This document shows positions 7,900 through 64,000 of a stretch of DNA of 64,000 bases, piece by piece (within the stretch, counting starts at the first letter, position 1; the number at the start of each line of letters is the position of its first letter). Origin of the DNA: Lobulomyces angularis. Lineage: Eukaryota > Chytridiomycota > Chytridiomycetes > Lobulomycetales > Lobulomycetaceae. The position numbers and the translations under genes are program-made. The notes under the pieces were generated by a model. That model was not told where the DNA came from, searched no databases, and was given only the letters and a program-made list of their open reading frames with translations. The stretch spans positions 1 through 64,000 of the forward strand of contig JADHYX010000062.1 in assembly GCA_027604685.1 (NCBI GenBank). The letters are read 5' to 3'.

Positions 7900-21842
<13,943 letters not shown>

Positions 21843-22239: not shown

Positions 22240-23348
22240 ATGAAATGGAAAAAACAAGTATTTGTAGAATACAGCCATGACAACAATAATAAAATTCTAT
22301 ATCATCTTGAATTGAATAATCCTCTTTTCAAAAACATAATTCAATCTATCATCCAAAATGATACTGGTCTTGACAACATTAACATTTCTCACATTTACTC
22401 CACTTCTCCTCTGTCCTTCATCCTCACACTGTAAATCGTATTGGAAATGTTTAAAGTTTAAAAAAAATTTTAAGCGAAGTTTATACAAAGTTAAATCTTA
22501 CGATGACATTGATCCCACGGATATTGACATCCTTGATTTTTCAGAAATTCATAAATGTGGTGATTTTAAGTGTAGTAATGGTAAAAAAATAGTACAAACA
22601 AATCATAAATGTTTTTTACAACCAACAAAAAAGCTGGATGTAAAAACTAGATTAATATTTTTTGATTATGAAACTCAAACCAATGAAAATAAAATCCATG
22701 AAGTAAATCTAGCCACTGTCGAATACGAAGACCCTGATGAAAAAATTGTTTTTTATTCAGTTGAAGAATTTTATAATTTTGTTGTTGATGTTAATCACGA
22801 TAATTGTACTTTTATCGCCCACAGTGGGAAAGGCATTGACTTTCAGTTTATATTAAAATATATGGTTAACAATGGATTTACGCCTGATGCTACTACCAAC
22901 GGCAATAAAATAATGAAGATGCAATGCAATTTACAGGATCGAATAAAATCAAAAATTTCAAAAATAACATTTATCGACTCTTTAAATTTCTTTAATACTT
23001 CATTGGCAAAACTTCCTGAAATGTTTGGACTAGAGGATCAAGTTCGTAAAGGTTTTTTTCCATTCTTTTACAATGAAGAAAAAAATATGGACTTCCAAGG
23101 ATGGTTTTCAGAAATAGATATTGAGATGGTTGGTTATGGTGCAATGATGCCAAAGATGGCAGAAAAATATATGGTATAACACATATAAGAATTTACCCTA
23201 CAATTTTAAAAATTAGTTAATTGAATACTGCAAAAATGATACAATGATGTTGAAAAAATGTTGCTTAAAATTTAGAGAAATATTTAAAAATATTACTTCT
23301 TTAGATCCTTTTCAATACTCAATTATCGCTTCTGCATGTTTGTACTGA
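22240..23348 (+). pseudogene. Truncated protein-primed DNA polymerase B (Polinton/Maverick-like), exonuclease part
   Basis: The best-preserved frame runs 22358..23173. It shows a Cys/His cluster (HKCGDFKCSNGK), an Exo I-like FFDYETQT, an Exo II-like TFIAHSGKGIDFQFIL and TFIDSLNFF further on, as in protein-primed family B polymerases of Polintons and related elements. It reads on in phase across a 43-nt intron-like gap (GTATAA...TTAG, 23174..23216) into 23217..23348, which has YCKNDTMMLKK and DPFQYSIIASAC, then stops. The polymerase palm motifs expected downstream are absent. A possible N-terminal part (from ATG 22240) is in another frame. Alternatives: a linear-plasmid or virophage-type polymerase. 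I regard it as a broken mobile-element gene, not a working polymerase. Confidence 0.8.
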
Positions 23349-50258: not shown

Positions 50259-52214
50259 ATGGAAAGAGAAATATCAGTTGAGAGCATTCATGAAAAAAAA
50301 AGAATTAAGTTTACAAACAATGAGGAGGATAATTTGAAAGGTTATGACTCGGAAGAAACTATAATAGACGATATTTCAAATAATTACGAAAGTAAAGTAA
50401 TGGAAAAAAATTGTAAACAAGTTGATACTGGTTTCAAGTTAACTGTTGTTAGAGATTTGCCCTTAAATTGTAACATAGACTGTGTAACACTAGGTCAGCT
50501 ATTACACTTAGATGGAGAATTGTCCGGTATTTACATTTAGTAACTAATTCTATCTTAAACGTGCGTTTTAGAAGTGTTCCAATTTAATTACATGCTAGAA
50601 ATTGATTGGTTCTTAACCAATGTTCCTAATCATTCAAAGAATATACCATTGACATTTGTGCACGGACAGCAGCATTTACAACTTGAATTTAAAGAATATT
50701 CCAAGAAGTTTAAAAACTTAAAATTTTTTGTACCAGATCTGTATGTCTATAACTATTTATTCTAAATATCTGTTATAGTCCTATATTGTATGGTACACAC
50801 CATACAAAAGCAATGTTTCTTTTCAACAAAAAGGAAACTTTAAGAATTGTGATTCATACTGCTAATTTAATTGAGCGGGATTGGAGGTGAGAAAATTAGG
50901 CTTTTTTTTTTGGAATTAAAAATTAGAAACAAAACTCAAGGCGTATGGATTTCTCCTCAAATTGCGAAAAAAACTTCAAACTCCCCACCTTCTTGCGAAT
51001 TTGAACTAGATTTAATAAAATATTTAGGTAATTATGGTTCATTTTTGGATGATTTAAGAAATAAATTGACTGTTTACGATTATTGCGGTGTTAAAGCGAA
51101 GCTAATTTACAGGCAAGGCTCTTTTTTTAATTGCTGTAGATGAATTTCTTTTTTAGTGTGCCTGGACGACATAAAGGAAGTGAACTTAATAAATATGGAC
51201 ATTTAGCCTTAAGAAAAGCGCTCGAAAAAGCTGAGTGTGAAAAAGAAGTTTTTGATGACTCCTCCCTAATCATGCAGGTCTCATTCTTATGTATAATTTA
51301 ATTATTAATATAAAAAAATAGTTTTCTTCAGTGGGCTCACTTGGAAAAGATGAAAATTGGTTAGTTAATGAGTTGAAAGCATCGTTTTTGAATGTAAAAA
51401 ATAAATTTATGCTCAGAAATCCTAAATTGAAACTAATATATCCCACTGTGGAAAATGTTCGAAATAATTTAGATGGATGGGCAGGTACATACATTAATTA
51501 ATAGTTTATTTTATAATTTTTTTTAGGCGGAGGTTCCTTACCATTTTCTAAAGAAAATTATGGCAAGCAGAAAAATTACATGAAAAAATACTTGAATTCC
51601 TGGAAAGCCCTAACTGCGAAAAGGTGATTTCCATTTAATATTAAACTGTGTCTTTATTTTTTATTTCAAAGGCAAATGGCAATTCCTCACATTAAGGTAG
51701 ATTTTATTAGCCGTTCCCAATTTTAATTTTTTTAAGACGTATTGTAGGATTTCAAATACCGTAGAAGATAGGCTTGGCTGGTTTTTATTGAGCAGGTAAG
51801 GGAGGGATTGACAAATTTAATATTTGATTAGTTGTAACTTATCTAAAGCAGCATGGGGCGAGTTACAAAAGCAAAATACACAATTGCAGATTAGAAGTTT
51901 TGAATTGGGAGTTTTATTATATCCTGAATTGTTTAAAGTAAGTTTGACTTATTAAAATCAAAAACATTAATGAACTATTAAATTAGAATAAGGGAAATCA
52001 AAGAGTAATAATGCATCGAAAAAACCTGGAGAGAGGCATTTTTTGTGATAAAGATTATGGAATTATTACTGATAATGAAATTCTGATTCCGATATGTCTA
52101 CCATATGACTTTCCTTTGTTAAGATATGAAGAAGGAGATGAATGTTACAATTCGAATGAAAATTATGGTCTTTTAAGAGATTGTTTTGGACGGACTAAAG
52201 CCTCTTATTATTAA
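50259..52214 (+). CDS. Tyrosyl-DNA phosphodiesterase 1
   Basis: Multi-exon gene starting [18 protein letters not shown] at 50259. An acidic N-terminal region precedes the catalytic part. HKD motif 1 is [11 protein letters not shown] (His and Lys of H-x-K). HKD motif 2 is MAIPHIKTYCRI, built across an intron, with [14 protein letters not shown] following after another splice (acceptor TTTGATTAG). [13 protein letters not shown] and NIPLTFVHG are typical N-lobe motifs, and [11 protein letters not shown] lies near the end. Stop at 52212. Known role: hydrolyses tyrosyl-DNA 3' phosphodiester links left by stalled topoisomerase I. Both catalytic His-Lys pairs are present, so it is probably active. 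It converges with the fibrocystin-like gene with about 140 nt between stops. Confidence 0.93.
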
Positions 52215-52356: not shown

Positions 52357-55300
52357 TTAATAATAATCTGGTACAGCAAATGGAGATTCAAAATCAGCTG
52401 CACGTATTGAAGTCTGCTCTTTATGCCTTTTGGCAACTTGTCCATGATAAACTTCTGCACCTTCCAAACTTTCGTAACTTCCCATTTCGCTACCCCCGAT
52501 TTCACTTTCAATAGAAATAAATCTAGTTCCTTCGTTAACTTTAACCAGCTGTTCGGAAGCCCCATTTGTATGACCATATTCTGTTTTTTCTTCGATTTTT
52601 CTTAGTGCTGGTAGCACATTAAGTGGAATTAAATGATGTTCATTATGTTCCATAATGGTAGTTTTATAAATGCTGGAGAGACGACTGTCGTCATCTTTTA
52701 TTGCTGATACAAATCTTGATGGGAATCTTCCTGTATGATTTTTGCTTAAAGAATGTCCAAAAAACCATTCGTTGTCGCTGGATACCGATGTAACATGAAT
52801 AATATCTCCGATTTCCAGTGACAGTTCATCCTGAAATATCTTATCAGGAACGTATGTCTCCATAACCTCATAAAATGTTTTGGGCTTTTGAGTTACTGCC
52901 GCTGGTGATCGAGCTCCTAAAAATTCACTTGACTTATCAACCTCCTCTTTTTGTCCTGTTTGTTCTTCAGGTTCCGATATAATTGGAGAAATTTCTGCAG
53001 ATCTTAACGCAATTTGTTGGCTGACATTGATCGATATTCCCTCTTCCAATTTTTTTTCTTTATTAACAAATGGAGCAACTCTTGAAAAATTATCTCTCTT
53101 TTTTTTCTTTCTCGAAATTGCTGCAAAGGAAGCCCCAGCTACAATAAATACAAAAGCAACACTTCCTATTATTACAGCAATTAACGTCATGTTGTTCTTT
53201 TCCGAAGCGGTTGCTACCTCAGAAGACTCTTCCAAGTATTGAAATTCACCTGTGTTGTAAGAAAACTTTGAAATTTGTAGCTTTTGAGAAACAGGGACAA
53301 AATTCAAGGAATAATTTAAACCATAAACAGATATTTCTAAGTCCGAAAAAGAAACAGTTCCGTTTTCAAATGGCTTTAATGTTGTACCCAATAGTTTCGG
53401 ATTTTCTAATTTTCCTGTTTCTACTGAAGACGAAGTATTATCAAATATTAGCGTAGCATACAAGTACCAAGCTGTATCGTCAATTCCAAGTTTTTCTACA
53501 AGCTGTTGGCTTTTATCTATCACCTTAAAACTGAATGTCGGTAGCTTTTTTACATAAACTGACTGCATTTCATTTAAATTTTTTAGCTCCTCTGGAATTT
53601 GAAAGTCTATGGTGGAAGCACTATTATCTTTAGTAGAATTAGCAGCGATCTGTGAATCAGCAAGTAACTTAATCAATGATGAATCTATGGTTGTATTTAA
53701 TAAGTTAGCTGGTAATTGTGGTACTGAAGCTGGCGGTGGGAATGCAATTTTTATGCTGCTCACGGACGCAGATGAAAATACCGATGAACCTGTTCCTAAC
53801 TGTACAGCTGATATAACTTTTTGAGCGTTTTGATTTAGCATTGATATTTCTTTATTGGCATCATTAAACTGATCTAATTCTGTACTTAGGTTTTCTATGG
53901 CCGCCTCCGTGGAATCAGTTGAGGTAGGAGTTTTAACAACAAAGCTATCTGCAGGTGGTTTACTGACAATGGAAAATGTCACACTTCCGCTAATGGTTGC
54001 TGATCTCTTCGATAAACTGTTTTCCGACACCACATTCACGACTCGAATATTTATTGGGCTTATTTGCAGAAAAGATGCTAAATTATTTATCAATGATCCT
54101 GTGTCGAAGAACGCATTTGCATCCAGTGAAACTGATGAAGTTAGTCCAAAAGTCAAAACCACAGTTGGTGTAGATTTGATTATAATAGGCAAGTTTGAAC
54201 CTAATATTAATGTTAACTGTAAATTTACCGAATCAAAATGGTTTGAGCCAATTGAATAAGATAAATCTGGAATATAGCTGGATTTCGTATTTGAGTTGGT
54301 GTGGGTAACGTTGTAGTCGGTTGAATCGACTTTATTACCATCAACATAGACAGTCAATGACTGCCAAGTTGGCCAATCTATCACTACCTTTAATTTATCA
54401 GTAGGGCTACCATTTAAGGTTAAAAATCTTAGCGATTGTGGAACTGTTCCGGTAAACCCGATTCTATAATTATTATTCGTTGCTACTACACCAAAAAAAG
54501 TTGACATTCTTCTCAAGCAGCTGTCGGACCCACACCACCCCATATTTTTTGGACCATTTAGTAAGTCAATAAAATTTCCTTGATCTGCATCTTCAGCCAA
54601 AATACCCACTGGTGAAATAGTTCTAATATACAAAATAAAAAAATAAAAATTCAAAGATTTTGTTTTTCATACCTAGACTGAGAATCTGAATCCAAACTCT
54701 CTATTACAAGCATTTCATAAATTGTATCTTCGCACAGGTAATAAGTACCATGAAATTGGCATTTTGAGTTATTTCTATAAATTCCGTAATTTGAAGCAAA
54801 CTCTTCTAAATCAACAACGGTGCCAATCATAGTTGTCCTCATAACTGCTGGAATTCTTTCTGGATTGAATCGCAATTCTGCTGCTGCTACTGCAGTACTT
54901 CTAGTTGTTCTTCCAAAAAAGGAGCCGTCAGTATCTATAAGCAATGAATGTTTTGGTCCATCACAATCCATTGAAACGCACAAAGATGGAGTTATCCAAC
55001 TGGGGTTCGGTTCGTAGAAGTAAACTTTTGCTTTTTCACTTACATTAATAAGTTTTGTATTCTTTATATAATGTGGCTTTGAAGCATCCTGATAAAAAAT
55101 AATATTAATTAAGGAACTTTGATTAAAACAAACCATTTCATTGAAGAAATTGGTAACTGCGTAACTTGTTTCATTGCAAATTTCATTTACAGTATAATTT
55201 ATAAAAATGGTATCTGATATAGAAACTTTTCCGTTTATGATGGGCCAACTGTGAACATGTCCAAGATCCCCTATATTAAAATTAAACATTTTTAATAGCA

Positions 55301-58300
55301 GATTTCGCATTAAATGTTTACCTTTCTTCATAAAATCTTCAGGTAGAATTAAAGCCGAACTATCAGCAAAAAGAGAAAATATTATTCCTGCCGTTGGTAT
55401 GGCAGACCCAAAAGTAAATGGAGCAGTAACTTTTGGTGGAGTATGATTTTGCACACAAATTTTGTCATTTGTAGACCCAATAAAAATTGAATTTTCAATC
55501 GTAAAAAATTTGTCAACTAACTCATGCATAGCAGCCCTAGGACCTACAGTTGCTCCGAGAAAACCTGCTCTGCTATCAGCGACGAGTAGATTTTTACCTA
55601 TGAATGAATCTGATAAAAATGGGAAAATTCCAATGATCCAATTTTTGTATGTTGAAAAATTTTCCAGGGTTGTACATGAAGTTTGAGTATCTGTAGAGGA
55701 ATATACTAATGCACCATACATGTTCGAATGCGCAATATTATCAGCAATATTTTCCCATTCACCACACTTTTGACCAACAATAATAAAGCCGACACTTTCG
55801 GAGCCAGCAGCTCTATTGTTTATTAAAATGTTAGTTGTTCCCATGCTTTCATATGTTCCAATATATCGACTTGCTTCTGAATCTAACTGAAAACTATAAG
55901 TTGTATATTTGGTTAACAAAGCTAAATTTTCAGTAAGTGAGACGCCTTCAGCGAAAATTTTAAAACTGCTTTCTAAAGTGTTAAAGACAATATTATTTTT
56001 GAGAGTTGCTGCAATAGGACCATAACCAACAAAAGGAGTATCTATTGCCATCACTGCAATAGCAGAATTGTATGTATCATGAACTACACAGTTTTCTACT
56101 ATGGATGTTTGAAATTGATTTAATCCCACCTCACCATAATCAAATGTAATTGCAGCACGATAATCCAGATAATCCAAAAATCCACTTTGACCTGCATTTC
56201 TGATTTCCACATTTTTTAAGACAGCAAATCCCCCTTGGTCACTTCTTACATTATTCAATCCCGATACCAAAATTCTGGCACCATACTTCTGCAGCTCTAA
56301 GGCCCCAGTTTCGTCTTCGGCGCCTTGAATCACAATATTCCTGTTTAACAACATTACTTCTGCAGACATATCGAACCCTCTGTTCCCTGGTAAATCAGAC
56401 TTAAATGACGCGTGAGTATGCATTAGAGGAGTGCTTAAGGTGATTATACGACCATCATTTGAAATGGAAGAAATCGTAACAACTTCTGATTCACTAGCAT
56501 CGTAGTTGGTGCTTGCTATTACAATTTTATCACCAGTATTCCAATCAACTTAATAAATATAAAATAATAATCGTTTTAACAGTTATATACATTTAAGTTA
56601 TTTTACCGGATTCAGAAAGTGATATTTCATTCATTCCCATCAAGGCTGTCCTCGATAAAACTGTCCAAGGCACTGAAGTTTTCAATTGACCTATAATCTT
56701 TAGTTCACCAAATACAGCTAAAAAAGTGTTACGATTAGTCTATAAAACCAATAGTGGTTAAACTTTACTAATCGATTTAGATAGGCCATGTAATCTTTCA
56801 GAAAATGTTGTAGTATTGGTCGTTCTATTCCCAAATAAGGTGATTACAGCATTGTGTTCAAACGGGGTGCTCTCATCTCCAATCTTCATAGAATATTAAT
56901 AATTTGGGTTAGTTATAACGCACCAAAAATTTTCCACCATTTAATACAAAAATATTCGTAGCATTCAAAAATATATCTTTCGAGTCATCAAACCTTAAAA
57001 TACCGCTGATATATATATTTCTAACATGCGTATCGACATCTAATGCAACTTGCGTTGTGCTTAATTTAAGTTCATTAGTTGTAATTTAAGATATATTCTG
57101 TGTACCCGTTGATATAAACGTCTTCCATAGCTGTAGGAAGGGTATTATTTGGCCAAAATGAAACATCTTCAATTGAAAAATAAGACAAAAAATTTTATTC
57201 TTAATTTGAATACCTGACCAAACAAAAAAATGGGAAATTTCCGTCGAATTTGAGTTGGGTTGTTCTGTATCCGGCACTTCTGTAGAAGGGCATCCAGAAA
57301 TAGGGCAATAACTAACAGACCAATCTACCCACTTACTGTGCGATCCTTGATTTCCATTAACTATGAAAGCGTTGACATTGGTTGCATTATCATACGTCCA
57401 AGTTCCCGTATTGTCCAGCAGAGTTAGAGAAGTATTACTTGCAATATTATTTCCATAAACTGTGAAGTGATCTACATCTTGCACCATTTTTACATTAAAG
57501 ATGACCCAGCTAATAATCACCGTTAATATTTAATAACAAAAATATAAACACCTTTCTATATATGGCATGAATAGGGTAAAATATGTTGGATCAACTGGTG
57601 CTAAATTATCTGGATTAAAATCAAGATTGTAACTTAAGTCTGATGCAATTAATGCCATGTATCTTTGAATTTCAGAAATTAGTACATAATAGTTAACTAT
57701 TTCAAGTTACCCTGGCCAGTATTGACGATTATGCTCCCACTTTAAGTTCATGGAACCATGCATGTTACTTATTTTAATATCCTTACCCCAAAATTGGTAC
57801 CATGGGTCTGGATATCTTATTTGTAATTTTGTCACTTTTACGTCATTACTACACCAACTTCCATTAACCCCGCCCCAAAAGTTTACTCCTAAGCTATAAG
57901 ATGAAATATCTTGAAAGCAATATTCTTTTGGCAATAGATCGGAATTTGGCATTATCATTCCTGGTGAACCTGACAACGTTCCGTCGAGATCAGTAAACCA
58001 TGCCTAATAATTAAAAATTTGCTTATATAAAACTATATTCACCTCTTGATTATGATGAAAGCCAACGACATTCTTGGTTGAATTAATATAACTGATTTTT
58101 GAAAATCTAGCCTCATAACCTCCATCAAAAGCATGATGGCAACCAGAGCAAGGTACTAGATTTATTCCCTATAGAGCATTAAATTTTAACAATGTTTACT
58201 ATTTTTTACCCCATAAGTGTCAAAATTAACGAAAGTAGTTGAATCTATTTGAAAGTAAAGCGAGTTTGGGGTGTGAATTCCAAAATTAACAGCACTAAAT

Positions 58301-61300
58301 TGAAACGATGAATCTGATTCCATGCTTTTTATATATTCAATTGAATGAGACATTATTACCGAATTAGTTACTAAAAATATTAGTATTTTCAATAACATAT
58401 AAAAAATTACAGTAGCTTTTCCAGTAATTTTCGGGAACACTAATCCTATCCAACGCAAATTGATAATATCTATTATCTGCAGATTTTAAATTTACGAATT
58501 GCAAAGCACCACCCTCAGTGATTTCTACTCCAACCTAAATATTACAGATGAGGCTCAAAAACATCGCATACTACATACATTGTTTCCCCATGTAGTTAAG
58601 TTTAAAAATTGGGTTTCCATTGGATACCACATACCGCAACATTCACATGAAGACGGTATATACCTTTCCCATATTCTAAAGCCAAAATCATTGGAATGTG
58701 CTTTATTGTTGAAAAATGATCCCAGATTTTTGTTAACAGGGCACACGCTAACCGTTTCGGAAGGGCCAGTAGGATGGTTCTGCAGATCAATAAAGAAACC
58801 AGATCCCTCTGAGCCTGCTGCTGAGTTATTTACGTAATTGTTGTTAGGATTTGTTATCCAGAATGTCTAAAAGATGATAAATAATAGTTGCTTATATAAC
58901 TTACAGCAGGAATTTGGTCAGTGTTTAGCAAAGAATATGATTTTTTGGTCAGGATCCCCAGATTACCAATAAAACTGTTATTTTCTTCAATTCCATCTTC
59001 AACGAAATATGTATGACCCATTATATTGTAAGCTACATTATCCTTAATTGTAAGACTTGTAACCTAAAGTCGAATTTTTTTATTAGTATAATTAAATTTT
59101 AATCGTACTCCATGTGCTGTAATTGCTCTATTGAAAGATTCATGAATGGAGCAACCTTCAACAAACGAGTTATTTCCCACAGTTGGATTTAAATGCCTTT
59201 CGGAAGAATTATATTAATATTTCCAATTTTAATATGGGTACTTTTACCAGTGAATCGGATATCGTCCAAGTTGAAACGCTTGCCCCATATGGTAGAGTTC
59301 TACAAAAGAAAGTTGAGCGTGGGAAGGAACTTCCGCATTCATTGATGGATGCACCTAGAATTTAATTGTAAGAGTAGTTTTATTTGAAATAAAACCATTA
59401 TATGTCCTCCAAATTGATCATCGTATGAATCTGAAATTGGAGAAGCTTTGCCATTATTGAGAACACCTTCTATAACTATGTTTCTACTTAAGAGTCCGAC
59501 TTCAGCTTTATAACTGATTTTGTGACCATTCACAACACTCTCAACTCCAGAATGCGTAAAATTAAGATTTGCATCTAATTTTAATATTGTGCCAAATTTT
59601 CCTACTTTCATATCCAATATATGAGCTGTTTCAGCGTCGTGTGGATTAAAAGAAGTAGATGCAACAACAATTTTCCCTCCTACTGGCCAATCAACAAAAG
59701 TATTTAACGATAATTCATTGCTATTTTTTTCAGCTGTTTTTTCTAAATGCGTCCAGGTAGAATTTAATGGAGCACCAAAAATATCTAACTGCCCATTTCT
59801 GAGTGCTAATACTTTTGATCCATAAATTGGTAATGGCTAAAAAAAAATTTAGAGTTTGATGTTGCATAATATACTTTTGTTCTAATGTTTCCCCATAATC
59901 TAATTCTTCCTTGATTTATATATGGAACATCTTTTGAACCAATTTTTAGTTTTCCGCCATTGTGAATAAAAATATATGTCGCTTCTAATGTAATATTTTT
60001 TGCTAAATCAAATAACAATGTCCCTTCAATAAGTACTAAATTTAAACGGGGAGTGTCAACATCAAGCATTACTACTTGATTTGGTGCTATCCAAACACTT
60101 TGCCCTATGGAAGGTAAATCTTGATTTCCCCAAGTGAACCTTTAAAGAAAAATGAACGAACTTTTCATTAAATAGCTAACCTAGATGACCACCTGTCCAT
60201 ATACCAAAATTGGACGTCATCGTTAGTATGGCTTGATCCCAATAATTCAGATGTAATAACTGGTGGAAATTTTCCACCATTATTATTCTTTCCAGTAATG
60301 CAGTTAATGGTAGTTTGATTTAAAAAGGTGATTTTACAATCGGCGTTTCCAATACTGACAGAAGTGGAATTTATTGTTCCATTAAACCCAGTTCCCGTTA
60401 TAGTGATAAAGGTCCCACCTGCAGTACCTCCAATTGTTGGAGAAATAGATACAACTTTTGCAGTAAGATGGGTTTCATACGTAAAATTAAAAGAGGCGGT
60501 TAGTGGAGCAGCATTAACATTTGAAAGTACGATTGGACAACTAATTGAATTTGAATTTAAAGAGCTTGCATTGTCCGAAAATGCTGGTACAATGCATGAA
60601 ATGGAAGTAACGTTGAAATTTACTGTGATGCATAATTTATCACATATTTTTACAGTGCTTCCTGCACCGAATCCTTTTCCGAATATTTTCAAAGTAGTTC
60701 CTCCATTAACGCCTTTTCAACAGGAAAAGTTATAATTATCATTGGTTAAATGGCATGAATACCTGATGACAGCGGCGAATCAAAGCCGTCAATTCTATGA
60801 TTGTAAGTAAACTTTACTTTTGCGGAACTTAGTCCATATCCATTCCTAGATACTTGTACTCCAACTATTGCAGTTTCCTGCTCCGGTATAATACCTGTGA
60901 GAATTGTATTGTTTCCTGAAACGGTCAATGAATTAATCGTTAAAATAAAATCTCCAAGATAAGCATCAACAAACGCGGCATTGTTGCCGATCCCAGTTCC
61001 AATTATTGTTACTGTGTCGCCTCCGTAGCCAATTGCTAAAAATACTATTAAATACATTTAATACAAAAAGACAAACTGGGAGAGATTGATGTAACATTCG
61101 GTGTAACTGTAATTCCAAATTGAAATCCACAATCACTAATCGGGCAATTTGTAAATGATGCATTTACCGAATTGTCAATTAGTATAGTTGGAAAAACTGA
61201 AGCCATTCCTTCAAAGTATTCCATTGTTGGTGCTTTTAGAGTGTAACGGTAAAAAAATTTATTTTTTGTAAATTATTAAACCTGTGAGACATTGAATTAA

Positions 61301-64000
61301 TGTAGAGTTCCAGAATTGAATCTCGCATGGAGATGCACCCAAAAAAACTGTCCCATTAAAGGGATAGGTTTTTGGACTGGGGCTAATTCTTATATTCACC
61401 TAAAGAGTGATAAACTAAAACACAGCATTAATTCATACCATTGTGCTTCCGGATACACTAGCGATGTTTGGTTGAACACTTAAAAGGTTGATAGTAAACT
61501 TAAATGAATTATCAACGTTCATAAAAGCGTTTCCTAGTGTTGATTCATGTACTGAAATTTTTTTATACCCAAGTACTCCTTCTTGGACCAAACATTGTAG
61601 TAAATCATTTCCTGAATAAATTACTTTACAGCTGGAATTTCCTAAAGAAACTGTAGACTTATTTGTAAAGCCTGTACCTGTAATATTTACTACAGTTCCA
61701 ACAATACCCTCAGCAGGGGTAATTAAATTTACAAATGGAGTGAGAGACTTTTTATAATTAAAAAAAATTGAAGAGTTTGACACGAATTGGTCTAGTTTAA
61801 GACTTTCCACGTTAGCTTCATTAAACGGTAGGAATGCTACATCTCCAAACGAGGAACCAACATATTTTATATCAACGTTGAACCTATATATATCGAGTAC
61901 TGTTAAAAACTTGCTTTCAAGCTCAAAAATTGGTAAGCTGGTGGTAAATATGGAGATATTGTCAATGTATCCTATGAAATTTCCAAAATAGCTTAACAAA
62001 TTTGCATTTCCTCCAGCATATAAATCATTAAAATTGAATGGCGTAATGTTGCTATCCAGGTTTCGGGAACTGCTTTTCGTTGCATTAACAAATAATTGCT
62101 GCAAATTATTAGTCCTCATTCCTACAATGTGAGTTATTCCCGAAGAAATGCTCAGATAATTTCTCACAACCGACCAGACACTCACAGTAGTGTCACTTAC
62201 ATTTACATTATAATTCTTTTCCAAAATTTTTAAACCGCCACAAAGCATATTATCTGTGCAATTATCTCTACTAACCCAGCCATTTTCGTCAGAATTGACT
62301 GATCCGTTTGTAAAGAACGTTGCATTCATGTCGGTTTTTAACCAGTACTCTACAATCCCACTTGGTAAGTAAACAAACATAAAAGTGTTGCTTTTATTCC
62401 CTAACCCATCTGATAAAAGCATTCCTGTTTCGTTTAATCCTATATCTGGCTTCATCCAAAATTCAATGGTAGCATTGGCGAATGTGCCACTGTGTGAAGT
62501 ATTTAGTTTGGAAAAAGTGCCACCTTCATATAAATTGAATTCCAGATTTTGAGTTTTGTCAGAATTATTCACATTTTGATTTTTATAGCTAAAGCTTTTT
62601 AATAAAGACTTGCTAGAAATCAAAAAAGCTGAGTAATCAGGGAGTTTTCCAGTAGTGCATCTTAAGTTGGTTTTTTCAGCATAAACAACTTTGCAGTCGC
62701 TACCTCCTATGCTTAACTACCAAAAATATTAAATAGATTATTTCAGATATAGTACCTTATAAGCAGTGTTAGAACTTAGGAAATGATCACCATAAATATC
62801 AATAGTGGTACCTCCGCCAAATGATCCTTGGTTTAAAAGGCCAATGCCATTTTCGACAATGGTTTCCTTGTAAAAAACTGATTGGGAGTGACCATTTTCG
62901 TCCGAAACAAAGACATTATGAATTCCACCAGGTAAGCTTTGATCTGTATTGCACTGAATAACGGTGGAATTTACGTATGCCGAAGCACACTTTGCTTTCC
63001 CTATCCACACAACTGAACTTAAAAGCGAAAAATTTTCCCCCAGTACTTCAAATTGAGTTGTGTTAAGTTTCTTAAATTGTTTAATAGTAGAAGTCAATTC
63101 TTGTCTATAAAGGTATGTTATTCCAGTTACATTGCTACCTGTTAATATTTATGAAGTTAAATACCAAAATTTGTTAATTTTACCGCTGCTTTCTTCCCGC
63201 TTTACGAGACCATTTTTACCGTCTGAACTCTGATACGTCACTTCATTTGAGTCAGAAGAAATTCTAAATGAGAATTCCGAGTTTTGCCTTTGCTTAGAAG
63301 ATAACACATAAATTTTTCCAAAACATTTAAAAAAATCGTTCATGTAATTATATAGTCCTACGTATTGAAATTTTATTTCAATTGAACTTAAGGTTTTATT
63401 TAAACTTGAGAAACCGTGGTTGTTTGGTGGGAAAGAAAAAGAATCCTTGCCCAAAATAATCTGAAAAACATTTGAGATTTGATCGATTTTCCCAGTATAA
63501 TTGTTGTAGGTGTTTTGTGCATCTGCCCAATCAATATTGACTATGTCCCCAGGTATTATCTCAAGATCTGCTGGTGAAAATTTGAAAACTGGTACGGCTG
63601 GTGTAAAATTGGCTATCAGCTGTACATTATGGCGTGTTACCAGAGGTGACGTATTAACTATTAAATTGGTGTAGTTCGAAAATACTACTCGCCCCATACT
63701 AATTGAATAATTTGCTGTTTTGTGGCAATCGCTAACTCCTCTAGGACAAAACCCTTCTCCTAAAACTGTAATGTTTTGACCGCCATGGAATGATCCACTG
63801 GTTTTGGTGGTGTTAAAAACAGTTAGCTTGTAGTCAAAGGTTACATTAGCGCTGATGGCAGCGTATCCTGAAAATCCTGTTATCATCGATATTTCAAAAT
63901 TTGAATTTGGTTTGAAGGAGGGTGTAATACAATTAACACTGCTAGAAGTAACGCTCTTTACCTCACAAGATTTGGTTCCAAAATAAACGGATACATTGCC
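52357..64000 (-). CDS. Giant fibrocystin-L-like surface protein with SH3 cytoplasmic tail (5' end outside window)
   Basis: Minus-strand, many exons, reading open to the window edge, so the N-terminus is missing. In order: IPT/TIG repeats (about 63.9-62.7 kb, GGGTTIDIYGDHF); a LamG/concanavalin-like block (about 62.5-61.9 kb, NATIEFWMKPDIGLNETG); more IPT/TIG (GIVGTVVNITGTGFTNKST, GGTAGGTFITITGTGFNG); a first G8 domain (60.1-59.8 kb, VLIEGTLLFDLAKNITL); parallel beta-helix repeats; a second G8 (57.2-56.8 kb, NIYISGILRFDDSKDIFL); beta-helix repeats (56.4-54.7 kb); a membrane-proximal region; a membrane helix (LIAVIIGSVAFVFIVAGASF) followed by RKKKKR; and a cytoplasmic SH3 domain (ETYVPDKIFQDELSLEIGDI, NEWFFGHS, GRFPSRFV). 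Many N-x-S/T sites. The ectodomain order matches PKHD1L1; the SH3 is not part of the animal proteins I know. Likely adhesion or receptor role. Confidence 0.9.
52690..52890 (-). other. SH3 domain-coding segment of the fibrocystin-like gene
   Basis: Within the last exon: ALYDY-like opening YEVMETYVPDKIFQ, then DELSLEIGDIIHV (acidic RT loop and n-Src side), NEWFFGHS (the conserved Trp), and GRFPSRFVSAI (G-x-F-P...V ending). All landmark positions of an SH3 fold are present in the right spacing. Confidence 0.9.

What the first reader, a model, noticed from the sequence alone, without database searches (positions are those of the whole stretch)
52357..64000. Fibrocystin-L-like giant ectodomain joined to a cytoplasmic SH3 domain
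The C-terminal exon reads without a break from the beta-helix-adjacent ectodomain through a membrane helix and an RKKKKR stop-transfer signal into a complete SH3 domain. Seen directly: the helix, the basic stop and the SH3 landmarks lie in one exon (52357-54654), so this is not a mis-join. Known: animal PKHD1L1 and PKHD1 have IPT, G8 and PbH1 repeats, a membrane helix and a short tail without SH3. Inference: in this organism a ciliary or surface adhesion receptor is wired directly to proline-rich cytoskeletal or signalling partners.
Basis: partly seen in the sequence, partly recalled or inferred. Interest (0 to 1): 0.8.

Follow-up and report, generated by a model that had tools for sequence, protein, structure and literature searches.

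The report
Fibrocystin-L homologue with an SH3 tail
An unidentified eukaryote carries a giant surface-type protein of the fibrocystin-L family, known from the coat of inner-ear hair cells, whose inner end bears an SH3 docking domain not seen in the relatives examined.

Summary
On the minus strand a gene with about 40 short introns ends in one exon (54622-52357). It reads without a stop from fibrocystin-L ectodomain through a membrane helix and RKKKKR into an SH3 domain. The outer part of this exon matches 116 of 128 relatives, so it is the true last exon of a fibrocystin-L gene. A database record from a longer contig (P0121) has the same tail. The SH3 passes Pfam cut-offs and beats 2000 shuffles. 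None of 128 other relatives examined has one; 514 more were not listed. The gene runs past the window edge and is the only copy found. So this is a new variant of a known family. That the SH3 couples the coat to actin or endocytic partners is inference. Structure prediction without an alignment was uninformative, and the organism was not identified.

The parts
52357..54622 (-). last exon: distal ectodomain, membrane helix, basic stop-transfer, linker, SH3, C-terminal extension, stop TAA (52359-52357)
   Evidence: last 260 residues identical in P0121
53191..54621 (-). distal ectodomain, homologous to the C-terminal ectodomain of fibrocystin-L proteins
   Evidence: E <= 1e-5 in 116 of 128 relatives
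53134..53190 (-). membrane helix
53095..53112 (-). RKKKKR stop-transfer
52705..52866 (-). SH3 domain (Pfam SH3_2 match; SH3_1 match 52833-52717)
52360..52704 (-). C-terminal extension after the SH3 domain, no family assigned
54673..56548 (-). exon with second beta-helix (CEMIP_beta-hel 26.4 bits, just under its cut-off of 27.3)
56607..57059 (-). exons of the second G8 domain
58579..59354 (-). exons of the first CEMIP-type beta-helix, with the GRYPIHWH block
59396..60139 (-). exons of the first G8 domain
60205..61035 (-). TIG/IPT exons
61439..62716 (-). exon with Laminin_G_3-like domain and a TIG
62756..64000 (-). TIG/IPT exons; the gene runs off the window and continues to about position 69,100 of the contig

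Best explanation
The gene encodes a fibrocystin-L (PKHD1L1) homologue, a type I membrane protein of about 4.8-4.9 thousand residues. It has a TIG/IPT stalk, two G8 domains with TMEM2/CEMIP-type beta-helices, one membrane helix and a 251-residue cytoplasmic tail with an SH3 domain. Shown by sequence: domain order, one-exon continuity of ectodomain to SH3, no second copy found, presence in a second record. Inferred: the ectodomain sits on the cell or ciliary surface as a coat or adhesion layer (as PKHD1L1 does on stereocilia), and the SH3 domain binds a proline-rich partner of the actin cortex or endocytic machinery, so anchoring or relaying the coat. The family keeps its ectodomain and changes its tail by lineage; this lineage acquired SH3.
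For: Conserved region 45% identical to Klebsormidium fibrocystin-L over the 476-residue query, E 2.5e-153. Pfam on P0121: 9 TIG stretches, 2 G8, CEMIP_beta-hel 204 bits, SH3_1 26.8 bits, cut-off 22.9. Exon continuity. Outer part of the exon homologous to relatives' C-terminal ectodomains. SH3 by Pfam, by PDB sequences (best osteoclast-stimulating factor 1, E 1e-4; then beta-PIX, CIN85 and sorbin-type adaptors) and by an own-genome profile. Tails differ between relatives. Mouse PKHD1L1 is a stereocilia coat protein (abstract and passages of PMC6707252).
Against: The SH3 first strand and likely part of the ligand groove are degenerate, so classical PxxP binding is uncertain. AlphaFold2 without an alignment gave no SH3 fold: mean pLDDT 51.6 and 51.2 for 75 and 65 residues; at that confidence it counts neither way. 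No partner, localisation or expression data. The SH3 tail was seen in one organism only.
Confidence: 0.6

Rival explanations
1. The fusion is real, but the SH3 domain is a trafficking or ciliary-targeting element, or binds an atypical ligand, and does not link the coat to the cytoskeleton.
For: Degenerate ALYDY strand; PSRF where the PDB relatives shown read PSNY or PSNF. PKHD1's tail carries a ciliary targeting motif (passage of PMC13424714).
Against: The tryptophan, the glycine-x-x-proline block and the acidic stretch before ELSL are kept.
Confidence: 0.27
2. Assembly or annotation artefact: SH3 belongs to another gene or transcript.
For: No other relative examined carries SH3 (0 of 128). 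No RNA evidence was available.
Against: One uninterrupted frame with coding-like codon use through ectodomain, linker and tail; identical last 260 residues in a record from a longer contig with a few residue differences elsewhere; no intron between helix and SH3.
Confidence: 0.03
3. The segment is not an SH3 domain but a chance resemblance.
For: Two single-sequence structure predictions did not give an SH3 fold.
Against: Two Pfam SH3 models above cut-off (a third, SH3_9, is under its cut-off, 25.2 against 30); best of 2000 shuffles 9.2 bits against 21.7; models at pLDDT about 51 carry no weight.
Confidence: 0.03

Closest known systems
Fibrocystin-L (PKHD1L1)
   Same: TIG stalk, two G8 domains, CEMIP/TMEM2-type beta-helix with the GRYPIHxH block, homologous distal ectodomain, single membrane helix near the C-terminus
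   Different: 251-residue tail with SH3 instead of 8-9 residues in human and mouse; a Laminin_G_3-like domain (29.9 bits in P0121, cut-off 27.6); no PA14 match at E <= 0.05 in the first 1542 residues or at E <= 0.001 in P0121
Lytechinus and Saccoglossus fibrocystin-L-like proteins (P0041, P0063)
   Same: same ectodomain plan with a long cytoplasmic tail that carries a known intracellular domain
   Different: the tail domain is a MYND finger (24.6 bits, cut-off 22.7, in P0041; listed for P0063), not SH3
Fibrocystin (PKHD1)
   Same: large ectodomain of the same family, single helix, 192-residue tail in human (passages of PMC13424714)
   Different: the term SH3 does not occur in that review; the review regards PKHD1 as a late vertebrate protein
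P0024, unnamed ENA protein of 4548 residues
   Same: nearest sequence in the tree (support 0.61); 9 TIG stretches, 2 G8, CEMIP helix, weak Laminin_G_3 under its cut-off
   Different: about 101-residue tail without SH3; Kringle domains

Membership tests
Fibrocystin-L (PKHD1L1) family | multiple TIG/IPT domains | tested here: met
   9 stretches in P0121; 4 in the first 1542 residues of the window model
Fibrocystin-L (PKHD1L1) family | two G8 domains, each followed by a beta-helix | tested here: met
   2 G8 and CEMIP_beta-hel 204 bits (1 stretch) in P0121; second helix just under its cut-off in its exon (26.4 against 27.3)
Fibrocystin-L (PKHD1L1) family | homology of the distal ectodomain up to the membrane helix | tested here: met
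   116 of 128 relatives; many matches cover only the first half of the segment
Fibrocystin-L (PKHD1L1) family | signal peptide and single C-terminal membrane helix | tested here: inconclusive
   helix clear; first exon ambiguous, two alternative hydrophobic starts, and P0121 starts without either
Fibrocystin-L (PKHD1L1) family | very short cytoplasmic tail (human, mouse) | tested here: not met
   251 residues with SH3; tail length varies widely in the family, so not treated as defining
SH3 domain | profile match above curated cut-off over the domain | tested here: met
   SH3_1 29.6 bits, cut-off 22.9, profile 11-48 of 48; SH3_2 28.1 bits, cut-off 21.8, profile 4-53 of 55
SH3 domain | SH3 beta-barrel fold | tested here: inconclusive
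   single-sequence AlphaFold2, pLDDT about 51
SH3 domain | binds proline-rich ligands | not testable with these tools
   conserved tryptophan and proline present, ALYDY strand degenerate

The most novel reading that the evidence does not exclude
In this lineage fibrocystin-L is a one-component receptor: the giant coat protein itself recruits cortical or endocytic machinery through its own SH3 domain, and the family as a whole evolves by putting different intracellular modules (SH3 here, MYND in two deuterostome invertebrates, proline-rich sequence in Klebsormidium) behind an ancient, fixed ectodomain.
Probability: 0.3. Interest if true: 0.6.

Novelty: new variant of a known kind. Interest (0 to 1): 0.42.

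Why it matters
The human and mouse fibrocystin-L tail is only 8-9 residues, which gives few clues to what the protein does inside the cell. A relative that carries a recognisable protein-binding domain gives a handle: its SH3 partner can be pulled down and its homologue sought in animals. It also shows that the family changes its intracellular end between lineages.

Tried and rejected
Searching the exon alone found nothing at E <= 0.01 among 7992 scored candidates, because full-length relatives fall outside the length limit. Two single-sequence models were uninformative, and no fold search was run on them. An alignment of the distal ectodomain with 18 whole relatives (A2) scattered the short row over the long ones and was dropped; a similar local trial was. 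A text pattern of mine for MYND fingers found none; it was too strict, as it misses P0041, which Pfam confirms. Mis-join and chance readings were rejected. The three aphelid genomes of PMC10608142 Table 1 (passages) differ in size and G+C (18.9 Mb at 52.05%, 24.7 Mb at 40.50%, 13.6 Mb at 39.93%; here 20.8 Mb, and 24-36% G+C in the window's 2-kb steps). This is only a rough exclusion.

Full report
What is there. The finding lies on the minus strand of a eukaryotic contig (G000:C62, 75,620 bases; the window is its first 64,000; genome 20.76 Mb in 533 contigs). A splice-aware reading of the contig gave 46 exons and 45 GT..AG introns, mostly 38-60 bases, ending at the stop codon at 52359-52357. 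The first four exons and part of the fifth belong to an upstream same-strand gene whose sequence looks like TFIIA gamma (recalled, not searched); I cut the model there, which leaves about 40 introns for the gene of the finding. The first exon is not settled: two alternative hydrophobic starts exist, and the database model P0121 begins just before the first TIG. My model has 4917 residues, P0121 has 4821. They differ in some internal exon choices, and I take neither as exact.

The last exon. It runs from 54622 to 52357 and has no stop or intron between the ectodomain and the SH3 domain. Its order is 477 residues of ectodomain, a membrane helix, RKKKKR, a linker, SH3 (Pfam SH3_1 and SH3_2 above cut-off, SH3_9 under it), then about 115 residues without a known family. 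Codon use is coding-like in the reading frame in every segment. In the script the SH3 and post-SH3 segments were cut one base off frame, so for these two the reading frame is the column 'f1'.

It belongs to fibrocystin-L. The G8 plus beta-helix region finds 634 proteins at E <= 1e-5, of which 120 are listed, headed by Klebsormidium fibrocystin-L (45% identity) and including many vertebrate PKHD1L1 proteins. Of 11 relatives printed, local alignments run from the TIG region into the distal ectodomain. The ectodomain part of the last exon alone matches 116 of 128 relatives at E <= 1e-5, mostly near their own C-termini; many matches cover only its first half, and some rows are secondary matches elsewhere. 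So this is the natural last exon, extended by an SH3 tail. The genome search with G8 gave 3 matches, all in this gene, and the exon has no second copy.

Is the fusion particular to this organism? None of the 120 listed relatives, nor the 8 others, lists an SH3 Pfam domain. P0121 does, but it is the window's own protein. A profile built from eight other SH3 pieces of this genome finds the window protein and P0121 (21.7 and 21.8 bits) and none of the other 128 (best 3.6 bits); the best of 2000 shuffled tails has 9.2 bits. Not seen: 514 further relatives, and any beyond the 7984 candidates scored. P0121 (2 member sequences, 1 contig of 92,740 bases, source not shown) is the same protein, with four single-residue differences apart from gene-model differences, and an identical last 260 residues. 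It argues against a local mis-join, though I cannot tell whether it rests on independent reads.

Tails across the family. By a simple hydropathy rule 92 of 120 relatives show a helix in their last 700 residues, followed by tails of 0 to 322 residues. Some records may be incomplete at the end. Human and mouse fibrocystin-L have 8-9 residues (passages of PMC6707252, PMC11043200, PMC13424714). Lytechinus and Saccoglossus relatives (2 of 120) list a MYND finger, confirmed for Lytechinus. Klebsormidium has a 322-residue proline-rich tail. A quick tree puts the window sequence next to P0024 (support 0.61) inside a group with Klebsormidium, Astrephomene and unnamed sequences (0.99). It holds 33 sequences: the window and the 32 of 128 relatives with a matched stretch over 400 residues; the other 96 were left out. 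P0024 has a tail of about 101 residues without SH3.

How it may work. PKHD1L1 forms part of the stereocilia coat in mice (abstract and passages of PMC6707252), and its beta-helix region is TMEM2-like, with a conserved histidine site (passages of PMC11043200). A GRYPIHWH block is present in that region here, and a corresponding pattern is in 127 of 129 proteins; I did not map it to the exact histidine. The most likely working is a surface or ciliary coat or adhesion protein, with its cytoplasmic SH3 domain recruiting a proline-rich cortical or endocytic partner. The surface role is by homology; the SH3 role is inference. Nearest PDB sequences are adaptor SH3 domains (OSTF1, beta-PIX, CIN85, sorbin; E 1e-4 to 3e-4). 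The first strand is degenerate (VMETY), the usual last tyrosine is F and the usual asparagine is R, so ligand choice may be atypical.

What is not settled. AlphaFold2 without an alignment gave no fold at pLDDT about 51, which tells nothing either way. The organism was not identified: the rRNA search did not complete (13 tries, listed in Tried and rejected). The window holds a DNAH7-like axonemal dynein exon, so a motile cilium is likely.

Literature. PKHD1L1 with SH3 and fungi: 2 papers, unrelated by title. Fibrocystin with zoospore: 0. Fibrocystin-L with SH3 domain: 4, unrelated by title. Fibrocystin, choanoflagellate, domain architecture, SH3 (three of four): none of the 12 listed of 38 holds fibrocystin. 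PKHD1L1, fibrocystin-L and evolution, choanoflagellate, chytrid, flagell- (three of six): none of the 20 listed of 1,066 holds either protein name. Further listings were seen but only PMC13424714 and PMC11043200 of them were opened, by passages. Searches cover open-licence PMC papers only. In these searches I saw no description of an SH3-tailed fibrocystin.

Noticed in passing
window 9546-21347, + strand: Open frames of an axonemal dynein heavy chain; the 618-residue frame at 9546-11402 matches dynein axonemal heavy chain 7 best in the PDB (E 2.4e-118).
   Followed up: partly
window 22340-23179, + strand: Open frame with a DNA polymerase B domain of the organellar/viral type (DNA_pol_B_2, 40.7 bits), right behind the dynein frames; perhaps a mobile element or virus-like insert.
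   Followed up: no
window 50871-51143, + strand: Frame matching tyrosyl-DNA phosphodiesterase (40.4 bits), the convergent neighbour of the finding.
   Followed up: no
relatives P0041 and P0063: Two deuterostome invertebrate fibrocystin-L-like proteins list a MYND finger in their cytoplasmic tail, a second case of a tail domain in this family.
   Followed up: partly
relatives with source 'ena' among P0002-P0118: Many fibrocystin-L-like proteins of about 2300-3600 residues from unnamed contigs, some several megabases long; their organisms are not shown and would be worth finding out.
   Followed up: no
window 61439-62716, - strand: A Laminin_G_3-like domain between the TIG repeats; the nearest tree neighbour P0024 has it weakly too, under the cut-off.
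   Followed up: partly
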